A stretch of 10,845 bases of DNA from Dethiosulfatibacter sp. (GTDB lineage Bacteria; Bacillota; Clostridia; Tissierellales; Dethiosulfatibacteraceae), in contig JAUVAG010000013.1 in the NCBI GenBank assembly GCA_030591825.1, forward strand, positions 1 through 10,845, in the 5' to 3' direction. Within the stretch, counting starts at the first letter, position 1. Each line of letters opens with the position of its first letter. Position numbers and translations under genes: made by a program. The notes beneath the pieces were generated by a model. The model was not told the DNA's origin. It worked only from the letters and a program-made list of their open reading frames with translations, and did not search any database. This document shows positions 1,117 to 6,240 of this stretch, one piece after another.

Positions 1117-1133
1117 CTTTCTCCTCTAGAAAG
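1117..1133 (-). promoter_or_regulatory. Ribosome binding site of the XRE-cupin gene, placed in a hairpin loop
   Basis: On the minus strand the sequence is CTTTCT-AGAGG-AGAAAG, a perfect 6-bp stem with the Shine-Dalgarno core in its 5-base loop, 3 bases before the GTG start. One arm (1128-1133, AGAAAG on +) is the 5' end of repeat copy A and the other is spacer. The repeat end therefore helps shape the initiation site. The pairing is seen; an effect on translation is inferred. Confidence 0.5.
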
Positions 1134-1246
1134 CAGTTTCGCTGCGTTATCAGCGTAAGTTGATATTCCAAATACGAAAGAAAGTTATCTTAAATGCATA
1201 AAACCAACACTTCAAGGGTTTATGAACTTCTACTTTCTTAAGCTAG
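1126..1246 (+). repeat. Structured repeat, copy A
   Basis: A complete 121-bp copy running from CTAGAAAGCAG to CTTAAGCTAG. Parts in order: hairpin 1 at 1133-1145 (GCAG...CTGC); hairpin 2 at 1149-1164 (ATCAGC-GTAA-GTTGAT, one G-T pair); closing stem 1178-1185 with 1232-1239 (AAGAAAGT/ACTTTCTT); inner hairpin 1197-1202 with 1219-1224 (CATAAA/TTTATG) around the loop ACCAACACTTCAAGGG. It abuts the ribosome binding site of the XRE-cupin gene and lies between that gene and its likely promoter, so it would be transcribed as the complement in the leader. Confidence 0.85.
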
Positions 1247-1298
1247 AATCACTTGTGTCATATAACGCACAAATATACTGTATAATACACATCACCTG

Positions 1299-1307
1299 AT
1301 TATACCA
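1299..1307 (-). promoter_or_regulatory. Probable extended -10 promoter of the XRE-cupin gene
   Basis: On the minus strand TGGTATAAT fits the extended -10 consensus TGnTATAAT. No good -35 is present at the usual spacing, which is acceptable for extended -10 promoters. It would give a leader of roughly 180 nt including the complement of repeat A. A second A/T-rich palindrome (TATACTGTATA, 1275-1285) lies just downstream and could hold a weaker promoter or an operator. Confidence 0.5.
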
Positions 1308-1351
1308 CAATCAACTTGGCTATTGCGGACGAATATATGAACTTTTCTTAA

Positions 1352-1472
1352 CAAGAAAGCAGCTTTGCTGCGTTAAATGCACAAGCATTTATTAAGACGC
1401 GAAGGAAAGTTTCCTTAATAGCATAACACCAACGCTTCAAGGGATTATGTATATTTTAACTTTCCTAAGCTA
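1352..1472 (+). repeat. Structured repeat, copy B
   Basis: A complete 121-bp copy. Hairpin 1 is at 1359-1371 (GCAGC-TTT-GCTGC). Hairpin 2 is at 1375-1390 (AAATGC-ACAA-GCATTT, perfect, unrelated in sequence to hairpin 2 of the other copies). The closing stem is 1404-1411 with 1458-1465 (GGAAAGTT/AACTTTCC). The inner hairpin is 1421-1426 with 1445-1450 (GCATAA/TTATGT) around a loop containing ACCAACGCTTCAAGGG (1428-1443). Just after it, CAAGAAAGC (1473-1481) repeats the unit's own first nine bases, like the truncated start of another tandem unit. Bases 1335-1351 before it resemble a unit's 3' end. It lies between the end of the TAXI-manC operon and the XRE-cupin promoter. Confidence 0.85.
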
Positions 1473-1484
1473 CAAGAAAGCTAT

Positions 1485-1512
1485 AAAAAGACGGCCTCAA
1501 AAGAAACCGTCT
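1485..1512 (-). terminator. Rho-independent terminator of the TAXI-manC operon
   Basis: On the minus strand the stem is AGACGG/CCGTCT (1507-1512 with 1489-1494), with a 12-base loop, followed directly by a T run (complement of the A run 1485-1489) and TATAG. It lies about 80 bases past the manC stop and is the natural end of the leftward operon. There is no T run on + beyond the stem. Confidence 0.75.
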
Positions 1513-1541
1513 CCAAAATTAAAATTACTAGATTCAAATAT

Positions 1542-1578
1542 CAAAAATACAAAAAGAACCGTCCCTTTTGTATTTTTG
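1542..1578. repeat. REP-like hairpin with GAACCGTCCC loop
   Basis: A perfect 13-bp inverted repeat, CAAAAATACAAAA (1542-1554) with its complement (1566-1578), closes an 11-base loop AGAACCGTCCC. It lies 14 bases past the manC stop. Hairpins with a constant GGGACGGTTC core and copy-specific arms are, from memory, scattered in many bacterial genomes and resemble REP elements mobilised by RAYT/IS200-type transposases. No transposase is in the window. It could also serve as an additional 3' hairpin for the operon. Confidence 0.55.
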
Positions 1579-1592
1579 GGTTTTATATATTA

Positions 1593-2633
1593 CTACAGCT
1601 TGTCTTGAACATTTTTGATATTCTGTACACAGTCCTTACTACAGATGAGGATGTTTCCATCCTTCTCCACAACCACTGCATTTTCAATTCCCACAAGGGC
1701 AACTGTCTGATTTGATATTACTATATTGTTCTTTGAGTCTATCTCAATCAGTTTTTCAGCCTTGTTTATGGAACCGTTCTGGTTTTTCTCAAATATTTCT
1801 TCAAGAGCAGTGAAATTCCCAATATTATTCCATCCGAAATCTACAGGAATAGTCTTGATCTTGTCAGTTTTCTCCATTACACCATAGTCTATGGATACCT
1901 TCTCAAACTTGTCAAAATGTGATTTCAAGTTCACATCGTCATTTTTAAGTATGCTCTTAATCTCCATAAGTATCTTGTAGTGTTCCGGCAAATGCTTTTC
2001 AAATTCAGTAAGAATCATGTTTGTGGTAAATACGAACATGCCGCTGTTCCACAGGAACTTTCCTGAATTTATATATTCCTTAGCCATTGTTATATCAGGC
2101 TTTTCCCAGAATTTAACTACATCAATCGATGTGGATTTGAACAAATCAACAGACACCGTGGAATTAGTCTCGATATATCCATATCCAGTATCAGGCTTAT
2201 TTGGCTTGATTCCAAGAGTTATGATATTTCCTCGTTTTGATTCTTCAACAGCCTTCAATAATATATGCCTGAAGCCTATCTCGTCCTTAATTATATGGTC
2301 GGCTGGCAGTACAATCATTGGAATATTTCCATGCTTTTGTTTTATCACAAGGGCTCCGTATCCTATGGCAGCCGCAGTGTCCTTGAACTCAGGCTCTACA
2401 ATTATATTTTCCGCAGGTATATCACCAAGTTCTTTCCTAATATCATCCGCCTGAAGAATGTTTGTTCCAATATATATGTTTTCCGGTCTTATTATTGGCA
2501 GAATCCTATCTACAGTTTCCCTTATCATTGATTTTTCAGATGCCAGATTCAACAACTGCTTTGGTCTTTTCTTAGTTGACAATGGCCAAAATCTACTTCC
2601 CGATCCGCCTGCCATAATATATGTAGTAATCAT
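1593..2633 (-). CDS. manC: Mannose-1-phosphate guanylyltransferase (GDP-mannose pyrophosphorylase)
   Basis: This 346-residue enzyme of the cytoplasmic sugar-nucleotide transferase family would make GDP-mannose from mannose-1-phosphate and GTP, for polysaccharide or glycoprotein synthesis. Motifs in order: MAGGSGSRFWPLS (7-19) with KRPKQ (22-26), the nucleotide-binding start; LPADH (109-113); GYGYIE (150-155); FWEKPD (175-180); WNSGMF (195-200); IDYGVMEK (248-255). It has the length of the single-domain form and lacks the phosphomannose isomerase half of bifunctional ManC/AlgA. The motif usually read as GW-x-D-x-G is GWNNIG here (268-272), with Asn270 in place of the usual Asp. The ATG has GGAGG 9 bases upstream and starts 23 bases after the TRAP permease stop, so it is co-transcribed with a transporter it has no obvious link to. 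Confidence 0.88.
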   Translation of the reverse strand: MITTYIMAGGSGSRFWPLSTKKRPKQLLNLASEKSMIRETVDRILPIIRPENIYIGTNILQADDIRKELGDIPAENIIVEPEFKDTAAAIGYGALVIKQKHGNIPMIVLPADHIIKDEIGFRHILLKAVEESKRGNIITLGIKPNKPDTGYGYIETNSTVSVDLFKSTSIDVVKFWEKPDITMAKEYINSGKFLWNSGMFVFTTNMILTEFEKHLPEHYKILMEIKSILKNDDVNLKSHFDKFEKVSIDYGVMEKTDKIKTIPVDFGWNNIGNFTALEEIFEKNQNGSINKAEKLIEIDSKNNIVISNQTVALVGIENAVVVEKDGNILICSKDCVQNIKNVQDKL

Positions 2634-2656
2634 TCCCTATCCTCCATGGTGTATAT

Positions 2657-4378
2657 TTACTCTGTCATTCTTTTCATTTTAACAATATTATATATCTTGT
2701 GGAGCATAAATACCAACAAAATACTTATTGAAACTACAATTATTATTTCCAAAGGGCTTCCATCGATAAGTGGTGTATAGACAATAAGCAGTGGTACAAC
2801 GTATATTATCTTTGCATATTTAAGGGCAGCCACTCCCGTTTTAAGAGGATCTGCTCCTGCTATTCCTGCTGCTGCGTAGGCAGCCAGACATACTGGAGGC
2901 GTAATATTGGCATCCTGGCTTAGCCAGAAAATAATCATATGTGCCCCAAGAACGCTTACACCCTTATCAATGAATGCTGGTGCTGCAAGCACTGCAAGTA
3001 TTATATATGAAGAGGTGACAGTAAGTCCCATTCCAAGAACATAGGAAGCCATTGCGACGAAGAGTATCATGAGAGGTAAAATTCCATTGGAAGCTCCCAG
3101 TATTACGCTTGAAAACTTAAATCCAAGTCCCGTCAGATATACCGTTCCGATTATTATTCCTATTGAACCTGCGGTGATTCCTATGAATGCTATGTTTTTC
3201 CCACCTTCTTCAAGAGAATCCAGTAGCTTTTTGATTCCAATCTTTTCTTTAGAAAACACTAAATTAGTCACAAGGGCTGCTATCATCGACCAGAATGAAG
3301 CAAACACGGGAGAAAATCCTCTAACAAGGAGGAAAAATATCATTACAAGAGGTATGAAATGATGCCAGTTATTTTTGATCAAGTCAGCCACTTGCGACTT
3401 GTCTACTACAGTTTTTTTCGAGGGGTCCCTTTTCATATCTATCATTATATAAATACTTGCAAAATACAGAAATGCCGGTGCTACTGAAACAAGTATTATC
3501 CTTGAATATGGTATCCCCGTAAGTTCTGCCATTACGAAAGCTCCTGCTCCCATAATTGGAGGCATAAGCTGTCCTCCAGTGGATGCAGCGGTTTCTATGG
3601 CCGCCGCCTCATGACTTTCAAAGCCTGCCCTTTTCATTAGGGGTATTGTGAAAGTCCCCGTAGTCATTACATTGGCAACGGCGCTTCCAGTAACTGATCC
3701 CAACAGGGCGCTTGCCACTACTGCAGCTTTTGCTGAGCCCGTCTTTGATTTCCCTGTCATGAGATAAGGAAGCTGGGTAAAAAACTCAGCCCCGCCGGTC
3801 ATCCTTAAAACGGCGCCAAAGAGTACAAACATGAATACATAGGTGGAAAATATTCCAGCAACGCTTCCGTAAATACCAAAAAGGGAGGTATATAAAAATC
3901 CAATTGTCCTTCCCAGACTCAGTCCTCCATGTCCCAATAAACCTGGAAAAAATCTCCCGCCCAGATTATAGATGAAAAAAAACAAGGCAATTAACGTTAG
4001 AGTTGGTCCGTTTTTTCTTCTGTTTGTTTCAAGACAGACAACAACCATGCTTAGTCCGAAAAATATATCAAAACTATTTACCAAGCCAGCCCTCTGTCCT
4101 AGATTTGAGTATTCCAAAATGAAGTATATGGTTGATGCTACAGTCATTATAAGTAGAATAACATCCACTGCTAGGTTCAGTTTGTAGTTGGTACTAAATC
4201 TGGATTTGGAAAATTTCTTTCCAGTAACTATATTTTCAATTATTGCAATAAAAGAAACTCCACCTATAAATAAGCCTCTTGTTATCTGTGGAGCAAAAAT
4301 TCCGAACTTTCCAGCCGTAATGAAAAACAGCGAAAAAGCTATATAACATATCCTTAAAATCTGTTTTTTATACTTCAT
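2657..4378 (-). CDS. TRAP transporter fused permease, TAXI type (4TM-12TM, DctQM-like)
   Basis: This 573-residue integral membrane protein is very hydrophobic, with many membrane segments. The first 150 or so residues correspond to the small 4TM (DctQ-like) part and the rest to the large DctM-like part; the two are fused in most TAXI systems. Diagnostic motifs are GSVTGSAVANVMTTG (227-241), AASTGGQLMPPIMGAGAF (264-281), and a second repeat-like region with GMGLTVTSSY and QDANITPPVCLAAYAAAGIAG near the C-terminus. It would import an organic acid, probably a C4/C5-dicarboxylate or amino acid such as glutamate, driven by an ion gradient. It works with the TAXI lipoprotein encoded just upstream. 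The ATG at 4378 has TGAGG 8 bases ahead and a closer GAGG. The 65-base gap to the binding-protein gene is mostly repeat F. It is somewhat short for a fused TAXI permease (commonly above 600 residues). Confidence 0.92.
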   Translation of the reverse strand: MKYKKQILRICYIAFSLFFITAGKFGIFAPQITRGLFIGGVSFIAIIENIVTGKKFSKSRFSTNYKLNLAVDVILLIMTVASTIYFILEYSNLGQRAGLVNSFDIFFGLSMVVVCLETNRRKNGPTLTLIALFFFIYNLGGRFFPGLLGHGGLSLGRTIGFLYTSLFGIYGSVAGIFSTYVFMFVLFGAVLRMTGGAEFFTQLPYLMTGKSKTGSAKAAVVASALLGSVTGSAVANVMTTGTFTIPLMKRAGFESHEAAAIETAASTGGQLMPPIMGAGAFVMAELTGIPYSRIILVSVAPAFLYFASIYIMIDMKRDPSKKTVVDKSQVADLIKNNWHHFIPLVMIFFLLVRGFSPVFASFWSMIAALVTNLVFSKEKIGIKKLLDSLEEGGKNIAFIGITAGSIGIIIGTVYLTGLGFKFSSVILGASNGILPLMILFVAMASYVLGMGLTVTSSYIILAVLAAPAFIDKGVSVLGAHMIIFWLSQDANITPPVCLAAYAAAGIAGADPLKTGVAALKYAKIIYVVPLLIVYTPLIDGSPLEIIIVVSISILLVFMLHKIYNIVKMKRMTE

Positions 4379-4390
4379 CCTCTAATCCTC

Positions 4391-4459
4391 AAGAAAGTCA
4401 TCCTTATCGCATAAAGCCAACGATTCACGGGTTTATGCATATTTTATCTTTCCTTAGCT
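4391..4459 (+). repeat. Structured repeat, 3' part (copy F)
   Basis: This copy aligns base for base with the second half of copy D. The closing stem is GAAAG (4393-4397) with CTTTC, and the inner hairpin GCATAAA/TTTATGC (4409-4415 with 4432-4438) is a perfect 7-bp stem around GCCAACGATTCACGGG. The tail is TATCTTTCCTTAGCT. Hairpins 1 and 2 are absent. It fills the gap between the TAXI binding-protein and permease genes. Its 3' end overlaps the last codons of the binding-protein gene, supplying most of the C-terminal Ser-Ala-Lys-Glu-Arg and the stop. In the operon mRNA it gives an intercistronic hairpin. Confidence 0.75.
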
Positions 4460-5412
4460 GAAATAAACCTTACTGCACCCTGGTGCATTGGTATTCCAAG
4501 TATGTCAACCATCTTCTCAATGGAATCCATAGAAAGCTCTGATGCCCTTGTATGTACCGAATGCATATGGTCCAGTCCTTCCTCTGAGTACAGAGCTTTT
4601 AAAAATTCATAGACAGTTTCTTCAGGTACATCCTTGTTGGCTATTATATAAGTAAGGTTTGAATAAGACACTACATCTTCCGCTTGTCCCTCGTAGGTTC
4701 CTGCAGGTATGATGCTTGTTTTGTAAAATGGATATTTTTCACTGAATCCGAACTCGTCTCCCAGTATTCCAATGTCAAGAAGCTTCACATCCTTGACAGA
4801 AGAAAGATCCATTATGAGTGATAGGGGAAGTCCACTGAAATAGCCGAATACATCAAGGTTTCCATCCTTCATGGCCGAAACCTGATCTCCAGGTGGAAGA
4901 TATACGGGGGAAACTTCATTCCACACTCCTCCTTCACTGAGAAGTATTTTATTGAAAATTGCTGCAGCAGACCCCTGGGGACCCACACCTATATTCTTTC
5001 CCTTGAAATCCTCAAAGTTGTTAATTCCCGACTTTTCAAGTACTACACAGTGATAGATGTTTGTCCATCCAAAGCCCACTATCCTAATATCTTCAATATT
5101 TTGTCCCTGAAAAACACCTTCATCATTCCAAGCCCAATAAAGCTCCGATCCATTTGCCAGACCCATATCTGTTTCACCACTGTTCACAAGTCTTATGTTT
5201 TCAGCTGACCCTGCTGTTGTTTGAACGTTCAAGCTGTATCCATCCATGATTTCTCCAAAAATGGTGCTGAAACCTCCACTCATTGCATAGTATGTTCCTC
5301 CTGGAGATGCCGCTGCAAAGGTGTAGTTTTTAACATCCTTCGCGGAGCATCCCGTTGAAACTGATAATATCATTATGGCTATTATTAAGCACATTGCTTT
5401 TTTTAACTTCAT
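4444..5412 (-). CDS. TRAP transporter solute-binding lipoprotein, TAXI family
   Basis: This 322-residue protein is the extracytoplasmic receptor of the TAXI-TRAP system. Residues 1-22 are a lipoprotein signal: KLKK, a hydrophobic stretch and a lipobox-like STGC with Cys22 as the lipid anchor. The mature part opens with YTFAAASPGGTYYAMSGGFS, typical of TAXI binding proteins, and contains TTAGSAENIRLVNSGETDMG and KGKNIGVGPQGSAA, both family signatures. Two ATGs stand in tandem; I chose the second (5412) because GGAGG (5418-5422) is 5 bases ahead of it and only 2 bases ahead of the first. It is the first gene of the operon. The last residues (SAKER) are encoded inside repeat F, so the original C-terminus may have been replaced. 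The ligand is unknown; characterised relatives bind glutamate or other small carboxylates. Confidence 0.93.
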   Translation of the reverse strand: MKLKKAMCLIIAIMILSVSTGCSAKDVKNYTFAAASPGGTYYAMSGGFSTIFGEIMDGYSLNVQTTAGSAENIRLVNSGETDMGLANGSELYWAWNDEGVFQGQNIEDIRIVGFGWTNIYHCVVLEKSGINNFEDFKGKNIGVGPQGSAAAIFNKILLSEGGVWNEVSPVYLPPGDQVSAMKDGNLDVFGYFSGLPLSLIMDLSSVKDVKLLDIGILGDEFGFSEKYPFYKTSIIPAGTYEGQAEDVVSYSNLTYIIANKDVPEETVYEFLKALYSEEGLDHMHSVHTRASELSMDSIEKMVDILGIPMHQGAVRFISAKER

Positions 5413-5457
5413 CATTTCCTCCGTTTTTCAAACAAATAAGTAAAATACATCCTATCC

Positions 5458-5486
5458 ATTATATTAGAAATACATAGCATTATCAA
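5458..5486 (-). promoter_or_regulatory. Sigma-A type promoter of the TAXI-manC operon
   Basis: On the minus strand TTGATA (5481-5486) and TATAAT (5458-5463) are separated by 17 bases, one mismatch from the full consensus. It lies about 46 bases upstream of the binding-protein start. Repeat copy C begins about 11 bases upstream of the -35 box. Confidence 0.8.
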
Positions 5487-5496
5487 ATCTTTTGTT

Positions 5497-5633
5497 CAAT
5501 AAAGCAGCTTTGCTGCGTTAACCGGGTCACGCTTCATGTGACCATAGCGGTTATTAAGAGGTCGTAGAAAGTTTCCTTAACCGCGTAATACCAAGGCTTC
5601 AAGGAATTACGCATTTTTAACTTTCTTAGACTA
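5497..5633 (+). repeat. Structured repeat, copy C (first of three in tandem)
   Basis: A 137-bp copy. Hairpin 1 is at 5504-5516 (GCAGC-TTT-GCTGC). Hairpin 2 is at 5520-5552, a long two-part stem: AACCG, GGTCAC, 7-base loop, GTGACC, ATAG, CGGTT. The closing stem is 5566-5573 with 5619-5626 (AGAAAGTT/AACTTTCT). The inner hairpin is 5583-5589 with 5606-5612 (GCGTAAT/ATTACGC, perfect), loop ACCAAGGCTTCAAGGA. The first seven bases (TTCAATA instead of CAAGAAA) have diverged. Confidence 0.9.
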
Positions 5634-5771
5634 CAAGAAAGCAGCTATGCTGCGTTAACCGGGTCACGCTTCATGTGACCATAGCGGTTATTAAGATGCG
5701 AAAGAAAGTTCTCTTAACCGCATAACACCAACGCTTCAAGGGGTTATGTATATTTTAACTTTCTTAAGCTA
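5634..5771 (+). repeat. Structured repeat, copy D (second of three in tandem)
   Basis: A 138-bp copy directly joined to copy C. Hairpin 1 is at 5641-5653 (GCAGC-TAT-GCTGC). Hairpin 2 at 5657-5689 is identical to that of copy C. The closing stem is 5702-5710 with 5757-5765 (AAGAAAGTT/AACTTTCTT). The inner hairpin is 5720-5726 with 5743-5749 (GCATAAC/GTTATGT), loop containing ACCAACGCTTCAAGGG. It is the clearest example of the full unit. Confidence 0.9.
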
Positions 5772-5893
5772 CAAGACACAGCAACTATGTTGCGTTAGAC
5801 GCGCAAGTGGATAGTGTCGCCGTTGAAAGTTTACCTTGTAAATAAAATTACAACGCTTTAAGTGATTTTGTATTTATTTAATTTTCTTAGGCA
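5772..5893 (+). repeat. Structured repeat, copy E (third of three in tandem, diverged)
   Basis: A 122-bp copy joined to copy D and the most diverged complete one. Hairpin 1 is at 5781-5793 (GCAAC-TAT-GTTGC), with a paired change from GCAGC/GCTGC. Hairpin 2 is GACGC/GTGTC (5798-5802 with 5814-5818), short and unrelated in sequence to those in C and D. The closing stem is GAAAGTT/AATTTTC (5825-5831 with 5880-5886). The inner hairpin is ATAAAAT/ATTTTGT (5842-5848 with 5865-5871), loop TACAACGCTTTAAGTG. All four helices survive despite many substitutions. Confidence 0.8.
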
Positions 5894-6108
5894 AAGACGC
5901 ATCAATAATGAATTTTTAGGGTAATGATACAAGATTCACTTTTCCATATATTCTTTACTTCATGGATGTTTTATACTCTCGCATAATATTTATCCAAATA
6001 TCATCACTCGTTAACAACAGCTACAGCCATTGAATTATCAACAATTCATTATTCTCGAACATACATTTGTAAATTATACAAAATATTGTATACATTGGTT
6101 TTCCTAAG

Positions 6109-6190: not shown

Positions 6191-6240
6191 ATCAGCTCTG
6201 CTACGTTAGACGCCTTAATTAATAAGGAAATTATTAAGGA
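6191..6240 (+). repeat. Decayed 5' fragment of the structured repeat (G)
   Basis: CAGCTCTGCTACGTTAGACG resembles the hairpin 1 region of copy E (…GTTGCGTTAGACGCGC). It is followed by CCTTAATTAATAAGG, a palindrome in the place of hairpin 2, and then by TTATTAAGGAAAA. The conserved loop and 3' half are missing. Confidence 0.45.

What the first reader, a model, noticed from the sequence alone, without database searches (positions are those of the whole stretch)
1126..5893. An unrecognised family of structured repeats: five complete copies and two parts in 5 kb
Copies A-E share an order of four helices and near-constant blocks: GCAGC…GCTGCGTTA, a GAAAGTT block, ACCAACGCTTCAAGGG and CTTTCTTAAGCTA. 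Two fragments, F and G, share part of this. They lie only in non-coding DNA or at gene ends. I do not know them as a named element. A non-autonomous mobile element or a dispersed RNA element are both possible. The density suggests a genome with many copies.
Basis: partly seen in the sequence, partly recalled or inferred. Interest (0 to 1): 0.8.

Follow-up and report, generated by a model that had tools for sequence, protein, structure and literature searches.

The report
Genus-specific folded miniature mobile element
The repeats are copies of a small, strongly folded piece of DNA that carries no gene and has inserted itself at many places in two species of one bacterial genus (Dethiosulfatibacter), mostly just in front of a short A-rich sequence and without duplicating it; which enzyme moves it is still unknown.

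Summary
The window has five full-length copies, one shortened copy and small remnants of one 120-164 nt element. A covariance model of it finds at least 120 matches in the window's own draft genome and at least 83 in Dethiosulfatibacter aminovorans. There is no Rfam match, and none was found in 197 other genomes of the order or 390 others of the class. The fold is real: in 41 D. aminovorans copies 177 cells show changes on both sides of a pair, against 51 in shuffles. It is mobile: the six copies of the window are absent at the syntenic D. aminovorans locus, and empty sites fix the ends at CAAGAAAG...AAGCTA without target duplication. Insertion is directly 5' of YAARAAA, which resembles the element's own start; the other flank has no motif. 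One-sided target, near-terminal hairpins, tandem copies and no duplication are how non-autonomous HUH single-strand transposons behave (PATE-like; IS91-type tetranucleotides enriched). A partial census does not support the RNA-copy model. No autonomous partner with matching ends was found, so the mover is inferred. New variant of a known kind.

The parts
1126..1245 (+). Full-length copy (short hairpin-2 form). It abuts a reverse-strand Shine-Dalgarno-like CTCCT before the XRE/cupin-like regulator gene; absent from the syntenic D. aminovorans locus
   Evidence: CM 96.3 bits; empty site read by eye from the alignment: CTCCT|GAAATC in G001 against CTCCT|element|GAATCAC here (the automatic breakpoint chose another solution)
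1352..1472 (+). Full-length copy (short hairpin-2 form), between two genes
   Evidence: CM 133.2 bits; absent from G001, though the right side of the site is rearranged
1473..1483 (+). CAAGAAAGCTA, taken as the remnant of a further tandem copy after an internal deletion
   Evidence: direct reading; that it is a remnant is inference
4390..4460 (+). Shortened copy with hairpins 1 and 2 deleted and both tips kept (CAAGAAAG...GCTG). It supplies the last codons and the stop codon of the TAXI-type protein gene (4444-5415, -)
   Evidence: nhmmer E 3e-14, CM 45.1 bits; empty site TTTCTTG|AGGAATAA (- strand) in G001
5497..5633 (+). Full-length copy (long hairpin-2 form), first of a head-to-tail array
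   Evidence: CM 159.1 bits
5634..5771 (+). Full-length copy (long hairpin-2 form), second of the array, no spacer
   Evidence: CM 168.6 bits
5774..5894 (+). Diverged copy (AGACACAGC left end) closing the array; the whole array is absent from the syntenic G001 site
   Evidence: CM 67.4 bits
6193..6213 (+).
   Evidence: repeat family D6, 81% identity to 5782-5802

Best explanation
A non-autonomous miniature transposable element (about 120, 137 or 164 nt according to the hairpin-2 form) that inserts in one orientation at A/T-rich sites. Read on the - strand it is 5'-TAGCTTAAGAAAG ... GCAGC-NNN-GCTGC-TTTCTTG-3' and enters directly 3' of a TTTYTTR target, which resembles its own 3' end. SHOWN: mobility, ends, no target duplication, one-sided target motif, head-to-tail arrays without spacer, near-terminal hairpins kept by compensatory change. 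INFERRED: an HUH-type tyrosine transposase supplied in trans (IS91-type Y2 or IS200/IS605/REP-type Y1) cuts single-stranded DNA after the TTTYTTR motif at the target and at the element's own copy of it. Because the element ends in the sequence it targets, new copies can land against old ones, giving tandem arrays.
For: Empty orthologous sites: 9 places where the copies of one species are missing in the other (4 in the window; L075, L094, L100, L013 pair, L091). Junctions are clean to within a base or two at L091, L100 and window 4390-4460, and consistent at L094 and, by eye, at window 1126. No target duplication (66 single copies: 4.12 of 7 bases shared between element start and right flank, 4.10 in shuffles, p=0.41). 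Right-flank motif YAARAAA in 91 single copies, none in 107 left flanks beyond A/T richness. IS801-type tetranucleotides directly at the right end in 17 of 92 copies against a mean of 1.1 at control offsets, maximum 4. Flank bases 1 and 4 complementary in 50 of 93, 29.7 expected, 0 of 1000 shuffles reach it. Hairpins: 13 of 26 pairs and 19 of 29 pairs with compensatory changes; 177 two-sided cells against 51.5 (SD 6.9) in shuffles and at most 31 with the partners slid. Y1 transposase genes in both genomes, a Y2/IS91 transposase in G001.
Against: No autonomous element with the same ends was found: the IS91-like element of G001 does not score with the end profiles, and the IS200-like copies of G001 look unrelated (by inspection; no model match). 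The conserved Y1 gene next to a comM-like gene has no element beside it, and proteins of its presumed subclass are reported not to be REP-flanked (passages of PMC6006769). No Y2 hit in the window's genome (it is only 68% complete). The most frequent target, TAAA, is not an IS91-type tetranucleotide. A guide-target covariation expected for IS200/IS605 was not seen: 1 of 28 copies with TTTCC has the predicted G at flank position 3; the weak associations found at positions 3 and 4 (p 0.014 and 0.027 among 21 uncorrected tests) are not the predicted ones. G-U versus A-C counts lean to the + strand as the folded one (34:14 over the union of pairs in A5, 23:15 in A1), opposite to the strand that this model makes active.
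Confidence: 0.55

Rival explanations
1. SINE-like retroelement: the + strand RNA is reverse transcribed from a nicked - strand end TTTYTTR-OH (target-primed), giving insertion directly 5' of YAARAAA.
For: Geometry fits target-primed reverse transcription; no target duplication; conserved 10-nt loop and RNA-like fold with a + strand lean; many of the 16 right-end places read have only the right end plus, mostly, an A-rich flank (that set was chosen because the ends had no listed full copy).
Against: In 742 kb taken without selection, left-only copies are at least as common as right-only ones: 9 left-only sites score above 20 (a tenth, at 346098, is a full copy with a diverged right end), one of the 9 being a decayed near-full copy and four keeping the AGCTA tip, with 0 reversed-control hits at thresholds 8-14; 4 right-only sites score above 17 with 1 control hit, 7 above 12 with 5. 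Caveat: the right-end profile is weaker, so right-only copies may be undercounted. Several short copies keep both tips, which points to internal deletion. Reverse transcriptase genes: none found in G000 (68% complete); in G001 one with an internal stop and one 1141-aa frame.
Confidence: 0.12
2. Dispersed functional RNA (5' leader or attenuator-like element) that was spread by transposition and is now kept for regulation.
For: In D. aminovorans 30 of 43 copies precede a co-oriented gene, 21 of them within 60 nt; one site is filled in both species at about the divergence of its flanks with most stems intact; the loop AACGCTTCAA is highly conserved.
Against: In the window's genome 43 of the 68 copies whose right neighbour could be called face the tail of an opposite gene instead; the six copies of the window are missing next to the same genes in D. 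aminovorans; of the two copies at the shared site one has lost the conserved loop.
Confidence: 0.15
3. Ordinary MITE moved by a DDE transposase.
For: Small, repeated, non-coding, mostly intergenic.
Against: No target duplication (empty sites), no terminal inverted repeat at the very ends (by reading), one-sided target.
Confidence: 0.03
4. Local duplication or assembly artefact.
For: Many copies lie at contig ends of the draft genome.
Against: At least 83 matches in a second genome with long contigs; copies at different loci with different flanks.
Confidence: 0.01

Closest known systems
PATEs (palindrome-associated transposable elements) of Haloquadratum (passages of PMC3119063)
   Same: No terminal inverted repeats, palindromes near both ends, no target duplication, too short for a transposase, high copy number, core deletions
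   Different: PATE palindromes were tied to IS605-type transposons; no such tie was found here. This element has four helices and a conserved loop, and forms spacer-free tandem arrays
IS91/IS801-type rolling-circle elements and their miniature derivatives (passages of PMC3189936)
   Same: The element begins with the tetranucleotide type found as target at its right end (CAAG, GAAC, also GCAC and CGAC); stem-loop at the left end
   Different: TAAA is the commonest target here; no sequence match to the one IS91-type element found in D. aminovorans
REP elements with TnpA-REP/RAYT (passages of PMC8266576 and PMC6006769)
   Same: Dispersed extragenic palindromic repeats; a Y1 protein scoring just under the NCBIfam REP-transposase cut-off (72.2 against 80 bits) is present
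   Different: REPs are 20-40 bp (abstract in the search listing of PMC3733652) and the studied ones carry GTAG (PMC8266576); this element is 120-164 nt, has no constant GTAG, and is not beside the gene
BOX elements of pneumococcus (recalled) and bcr elements of Bacillus cereus (recalled; search listing only)
   Same: Abundant structured intergenic repeats limited to close relatives; BOX is modular (recalled)
   Different: No sequence comparison was made here; their ends and targets were not examined

Membership tests
PATE (IS200/IS605-related) | No target duplication and no terminal inverted repeat | tested here: met
   absence of terminal repeats by reading
PATE (IS200/IS605-related) | Palindromes close to both ends | tested here: met
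   hairpin 1 starts 7 nt from the left end; hairpin 4 ends about 22 nt from the right end
PATE (IS200/IS605-related) | Terminal palindromes similar to those of an IS605-type transposon | tested here: not met
   only the two IS200-like copies found in G001 (L155, L157) could be compared: no model match at E 1 and no resemblance on inspection; their own ends were not fully mapped
IS200/IS605 (Y1) mechanism | Target motif at one flank only, cut after the motif, related motif at the element's other end | tested here: met
   positions of the motifs; cutting itself is not testable here
IS200/IS605 (Y1) mechanism | Target read by base pairing with a guide in the element | tested here: inconclusive
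   AAGAAAG near the end could pair with TTTCTT, but the predicted covariation was not seen
IS91 family derivative (Y2) | Left end and right-flank target share a GAAC/CAAG-type tetranucleotide | tested here: inconclusive
   17 of 92 copies in the IS801 set against 1.1 background, but TAAA is commonest (20 of 92)
IS91 family derivative (Y2) | Ends shared with an autonomous IS91-type element of the host | tested here: not met
   for the single Y2 locus found
REP/RAYT | Copies flank the transposase gene | tested here: not met
   no match at E 1 in L155-L159, the five Y1 loci found
REP/RAYT | 20-40 nt palindrome with GTAG | tested here: not met
DDE MITE | Terminal inverted repeats and target duplication | tested here: not met
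Any Rfam family | Score at the gathering threshold | tested here: not met
   window; three further loci, listed to E 10
Named ISfinder or MITE entry | Sequence match | not testable with these tools
   ISfinder is not held

The most novel reading that the evidence does not exclude
A bacterial SINE-like element: a structured RNA copied into DNA at nicked T-rich ends by a reverse transcriptase supplied in trans, with the + strand fold and conserved loop as its recognition signals.
Probability: 0.1. Interest if true: 0.85.

Novelty: new variant of a known kind. Interest (0 to 1): 0.46.

Why it matters
Two species carry at least 120 and at least 83 matches of a folded element that seems limited to one genus, with ends, target and several empty sites defined. 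That makes a little-studied group, transposase-less single-strand elements in Bacillota, testable: the ends predict the cut sites, the target shows a 1-4 complementarity that calls for an explanation, and only a few candidate enzymes were found in the hosts. The copies also reshape gene edges: one supplies a stop codon, and many sit shortly before start codons.

Tried and rejected
Known RNA family: rejected (in one search, three loci listed to E 10, the only match above its threshold was an unrelated M-box riboswitch).

Retrotransposition with 5' truncation: looked attractive, but that set had been chosen for right ends without a listed full copy. The scan of two whole contigs from both ends showed no such asymmetry, with the caveat that the right-end profile is the weaker one.

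Replication-strand preference: the - strand lies on the G-rich strand in 57 of 77 skewed copies of the own genome (p 3e-5) but in only 15 of 37 in D. aminovorans (p 0.32). Gene context may explain it, so it is not used.

Derivation from the IS91-like element of G001: the GAAC plus stem-loop upstream of its integrase looked similar by eye, but scored -4.5 against the profile of the similar-looking subfamily.

Relatives in plasmid and phage records: none by blastn. In viral contigs the 14-base pattern was too short (120 stretches, capped; 80 listed); those 80 gave no model match.

Pseudoknot between GCGUU after hairpin 1 and AACGC in the last loop: seen by eye, no covariation noticed when reading, not counted.

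Larger autonomous copy with the same two ends: comparing by eye those G001 ends that belonged to no listed copy showed no pair within 5 kb; the own genome was not compared in this way.
Full report
What was checked. The window is contig C290 of a 1.77 Mb draft genome, 68% complete. Repeat finding, blastn, iterative profile search and a covariance model (R1, from 33 copies aligned) confirm the family. In the window the full-length copies are 1126-1245, 1352-1472, 5497-5633, 5634-5771 and 5774-5894; a shortened copy is at 4390-4460; remnants are at 1473-1483 and 6193-6213. Nothing in Rfam reaches threshold.

How many and where. Model R1 gives 120 matches in the own genome and 83 in the other species of the genus at E 0.01. 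In each genome only 150 candidates (of 743 and 1464) were scored, so both are lower bounds. The other species is Dethiosulfatibacter aminovorans DSM 17477: a pattern of 25 positions, two of them free, in 84,980 species genomes hits three of its contigs and nothing else (the window's own genome may be left out there), and the contig lengths agree with G001. It was not found in the other 58 of 60 relatives by blastn, in 197 of 199 genomes of the order (the two with matches are the genus itself), or in 390 of 391 genomes of the class (the exception is the own genome, model R2). These samples overlap, and searches used stricter filters. Plasmid and phage records have none by blastn. In 742 kb of D. 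aminovorans read without selection, R2 gives 26 rows at E 0.1, 21 of them at 0.001 or better; three of the five weaker rows are opposite-strand matches to copies already listed. R2 was built from copies that include some of these.

Anatomy (+ strand). CAAGAAA; hairpin 1 GCRGC-NNN-GCYGC; GTTA; hairpin 2, of three main lengths; TTAAG.GCG; hairpin 3 (AAGAAAGTT with AACTTTCTT) enclosing CCTTAA and hairpin 4 (GCATAAC-ACC-AACGCTTCAA-GG.GTTATGC); ends ...TTAAGCTA...TTAGACTA or ...CTAAGCTG. RNAalifold on 33 own-genome copies finds 26 pairs, 13 with compensatory changes; an alignment of 41 D. aminovorans copies, independent of the first, gives the same helices with 19 of 29. Counted formally on the latter, 96.0% of cells pair (82.4% in shuffles) and 177 cells change on both sides (51.5, SD 6.9, in shuffles; 6 to 31 with partners slid by 1-3 columns); 0 of 500 shuffles reach either. 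The structure counted is the consensus of these same sequences, which favours it over slid versions. G-U against A-C at these positions leans to the + strand: A5 23:12 for pairs common to both strands (p 0.09) and 34:14 for the union (p 0.006); A1 9:4 and 23:15, neither significant. Consensus energies are -27.2 against -14.5 kcal/mol for A5 and -18.9 against -15.7 for A1. Cells are related copies, so these p values are optimistic.

It moves. The window is syntenic with G001:C31, blocks 76-79% identical. The six copies of the window are not there; the fragment at 6193-6213 lies in an aligned block whose counterpart differs, so its case is undecided. Further filled/empty pairs come from comparing fetched loci: L075/L041, L094/L016, L100/L013, L013/L100, L091/L148. 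That makes nine sites, counting the four in the window (1126, 1352, 4390, and the 5497-5894 array). The clearest are L091 (TTGGA|element|TAAATAATC against TTGGG|TAAATAATC), L100 (TTTTCAAG|element|AAAAACTCG against TTTTCAAG|TAAACTCG) and window 4390. L094 is consistent; window 1126 is read by eye and the automatic optimum differed. Four sites have blurred junctions: L075 keeps an 11-nt remnant, L013 is exact only on the right, and window 1352 and the 5497-5894 array are rearranged or decayed on the right. A tenth comparison, L084 2440-2559 against L129, was not usable because L129 seems to hold a related fragment there. One site, L084 1567-1679 and L129 1514-1633, is filled in both species and about as diverged as its flanks, so some insertions predate the split.

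Target. The left flank has no motif beyond A/T richness (107 copies). The right flank of 91 single copies is YAARAAA, like the element's own first seven bases. It is not a target duplication: left and right sevens are no more alike than in shuffles (66 copies, p 0.41). Tetranucleotides reported as IS801 targets or fragment ends (GAAC, GGAC, CAAG, CGAC, GCAC; passages of PMC3189936) stand directly at the right end in 17 of 92 copies (10 CAAG, 5 GAAC, 1 GCAC, 1 CGAC) against 1.1 on average and at most 4 at offsets 7-49; TAAA is commoner (20). Flank bases 1 and 4 are complementary in 50 of 93 (29.7 expected, 0 of 1000 shuffles; by species 18 of 39 and 32 of 54). This is unexplained; mixtures of two or three preferred tetranucleotides would produce it. 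The element's last base also goes with flank base 1 (p 0.004, one of 21 uncorrected tests). The three filters differ slightly, hence 91, 92 and 93 copies.

Arrays and decay. Copies stand head to tail without spacer (window 5497-5771 and several loci), as expected if the element's own CAAGAAA start serves as a target. Several short forms keep both tips and seem to arise by deletion between short repeats such as AGCTA or CAAG (by reading). In the 742-kb scan 12 left ends pair with a right end. Fifteen are left-only: five below score 20, one (346098) a full copy whose right end is diverged, and nine others above 20, of which one is a decayed near-full copy and four keep the AGCTA tip. Seven are right-only above score 12, four of them above 17. 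The reversed control gives 0 left ends, and 5 right ends above 12 with 1 above 17. The right-end profile is thus less specific, and right-only copies may be undercounted.

Setting. In D. aminovorans 30 of 43 copies precede a co-oriented gene, 21 of them within 60 nt; in the own genome 43 of the 68 copies whose right neighbour could be called face the tail of an opposite gene (simple ORF calling, 75 copies examined). A-rich ground before start codons and T-tracts after terminators would both supply the target, so this may be site supply rather than function (inference). The window copy at 4390-4460 supplies the final codons and stop of the TAXI-type gene.

Who moves it. Y1 proteins: one in the own genome and four in D. 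aminovorans, of which one is orthologous in both and lies upstream of a comM-like gene (name recalled); none has the element within its locus. That protein scores 72.2 against a cut-off of 80 for the REP-transposase model. Its assignment to subclass 2.1 is my inference from its C-terminal HTH-like part; members of that subclass are reported without REPs nearby (passages of PMC6006769). A Y2/IS91-family transposase stands next to a tyrosine recombinase gene in D. aminovorans only; its ends do not match. Reverse transcriptases: none found in the own genome; in D. aminovorans one with an internal stop and one in a 1141-aa frame. The mover is therefore inferred from the insertion pattern, not identified.

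Judgement. The insertion pattern fits HUH single-strand transposition better than DDE, target-primed or recombinational spread. By the descriptive definition in PMC3119063 (passages) it is PATE-like, but the link to an IS605-type transposon was not met for the copies that could be compared, so it is not filed as a PATE. It is a genus-limited variant with an elaborate conserved fold. Literature: 'Dethiosulfatibacter' gives 45 papers, of which the 10 listed titles and abstract beginnings were seen, none about repeats; other searches were made, seen as listings, with passages of five papers (PMC8266576, PMC6006769, PMC3189936, PMC5934647, PMC3119063) and of PMC13393415. I found no description of this element in those, and most subscription papers are not held.

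Noticed in passing
window 4444-5415 and 4390-4460: The TAXI-type solute-binding protein gene ends inside the shortened copy, which supplies its last codons and stop; the D. aminovorans orthologue ends differently, at the empty site.
   Followed up: yes
L232 1381-3265 (G001:C63): Single IS91-family transposase gene next to a XerC/D-like tyrosine recombinase in D. aminovorans, with a GAAC plus G+C-rich stem-loop upstream that may be its left end.
   Followed up: partly
L156 and L159 1036-1869: A Y1 (REP-transposase-like) gene conserved upstream of a comM-like gene in both species, without the element beside it.
   Followed up: partly
right flanks of the element family: Bases 1 and 4 of the target are complementary far more often than expected (GAAC, CAAG, TAAA); unexplained.
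   Followed up: partly
L105, L107, L127, L134, L137 and others: A subfamily begins RRACAAAG-like instead of CAAGAAAG (18 of 125 left ends have C at position 4); it looks older and its right-flank motif weaker, not tested.
   Followed up: no
L021 2726-2888 (own genome): M-box (magnesium) riboswitch, 131 bits.
   Followed up: no
G001:C27:113218-113784 (L192): Reverse transcriptase domain in an 1141-aa open frame, nature not examined.
   Followed up: no
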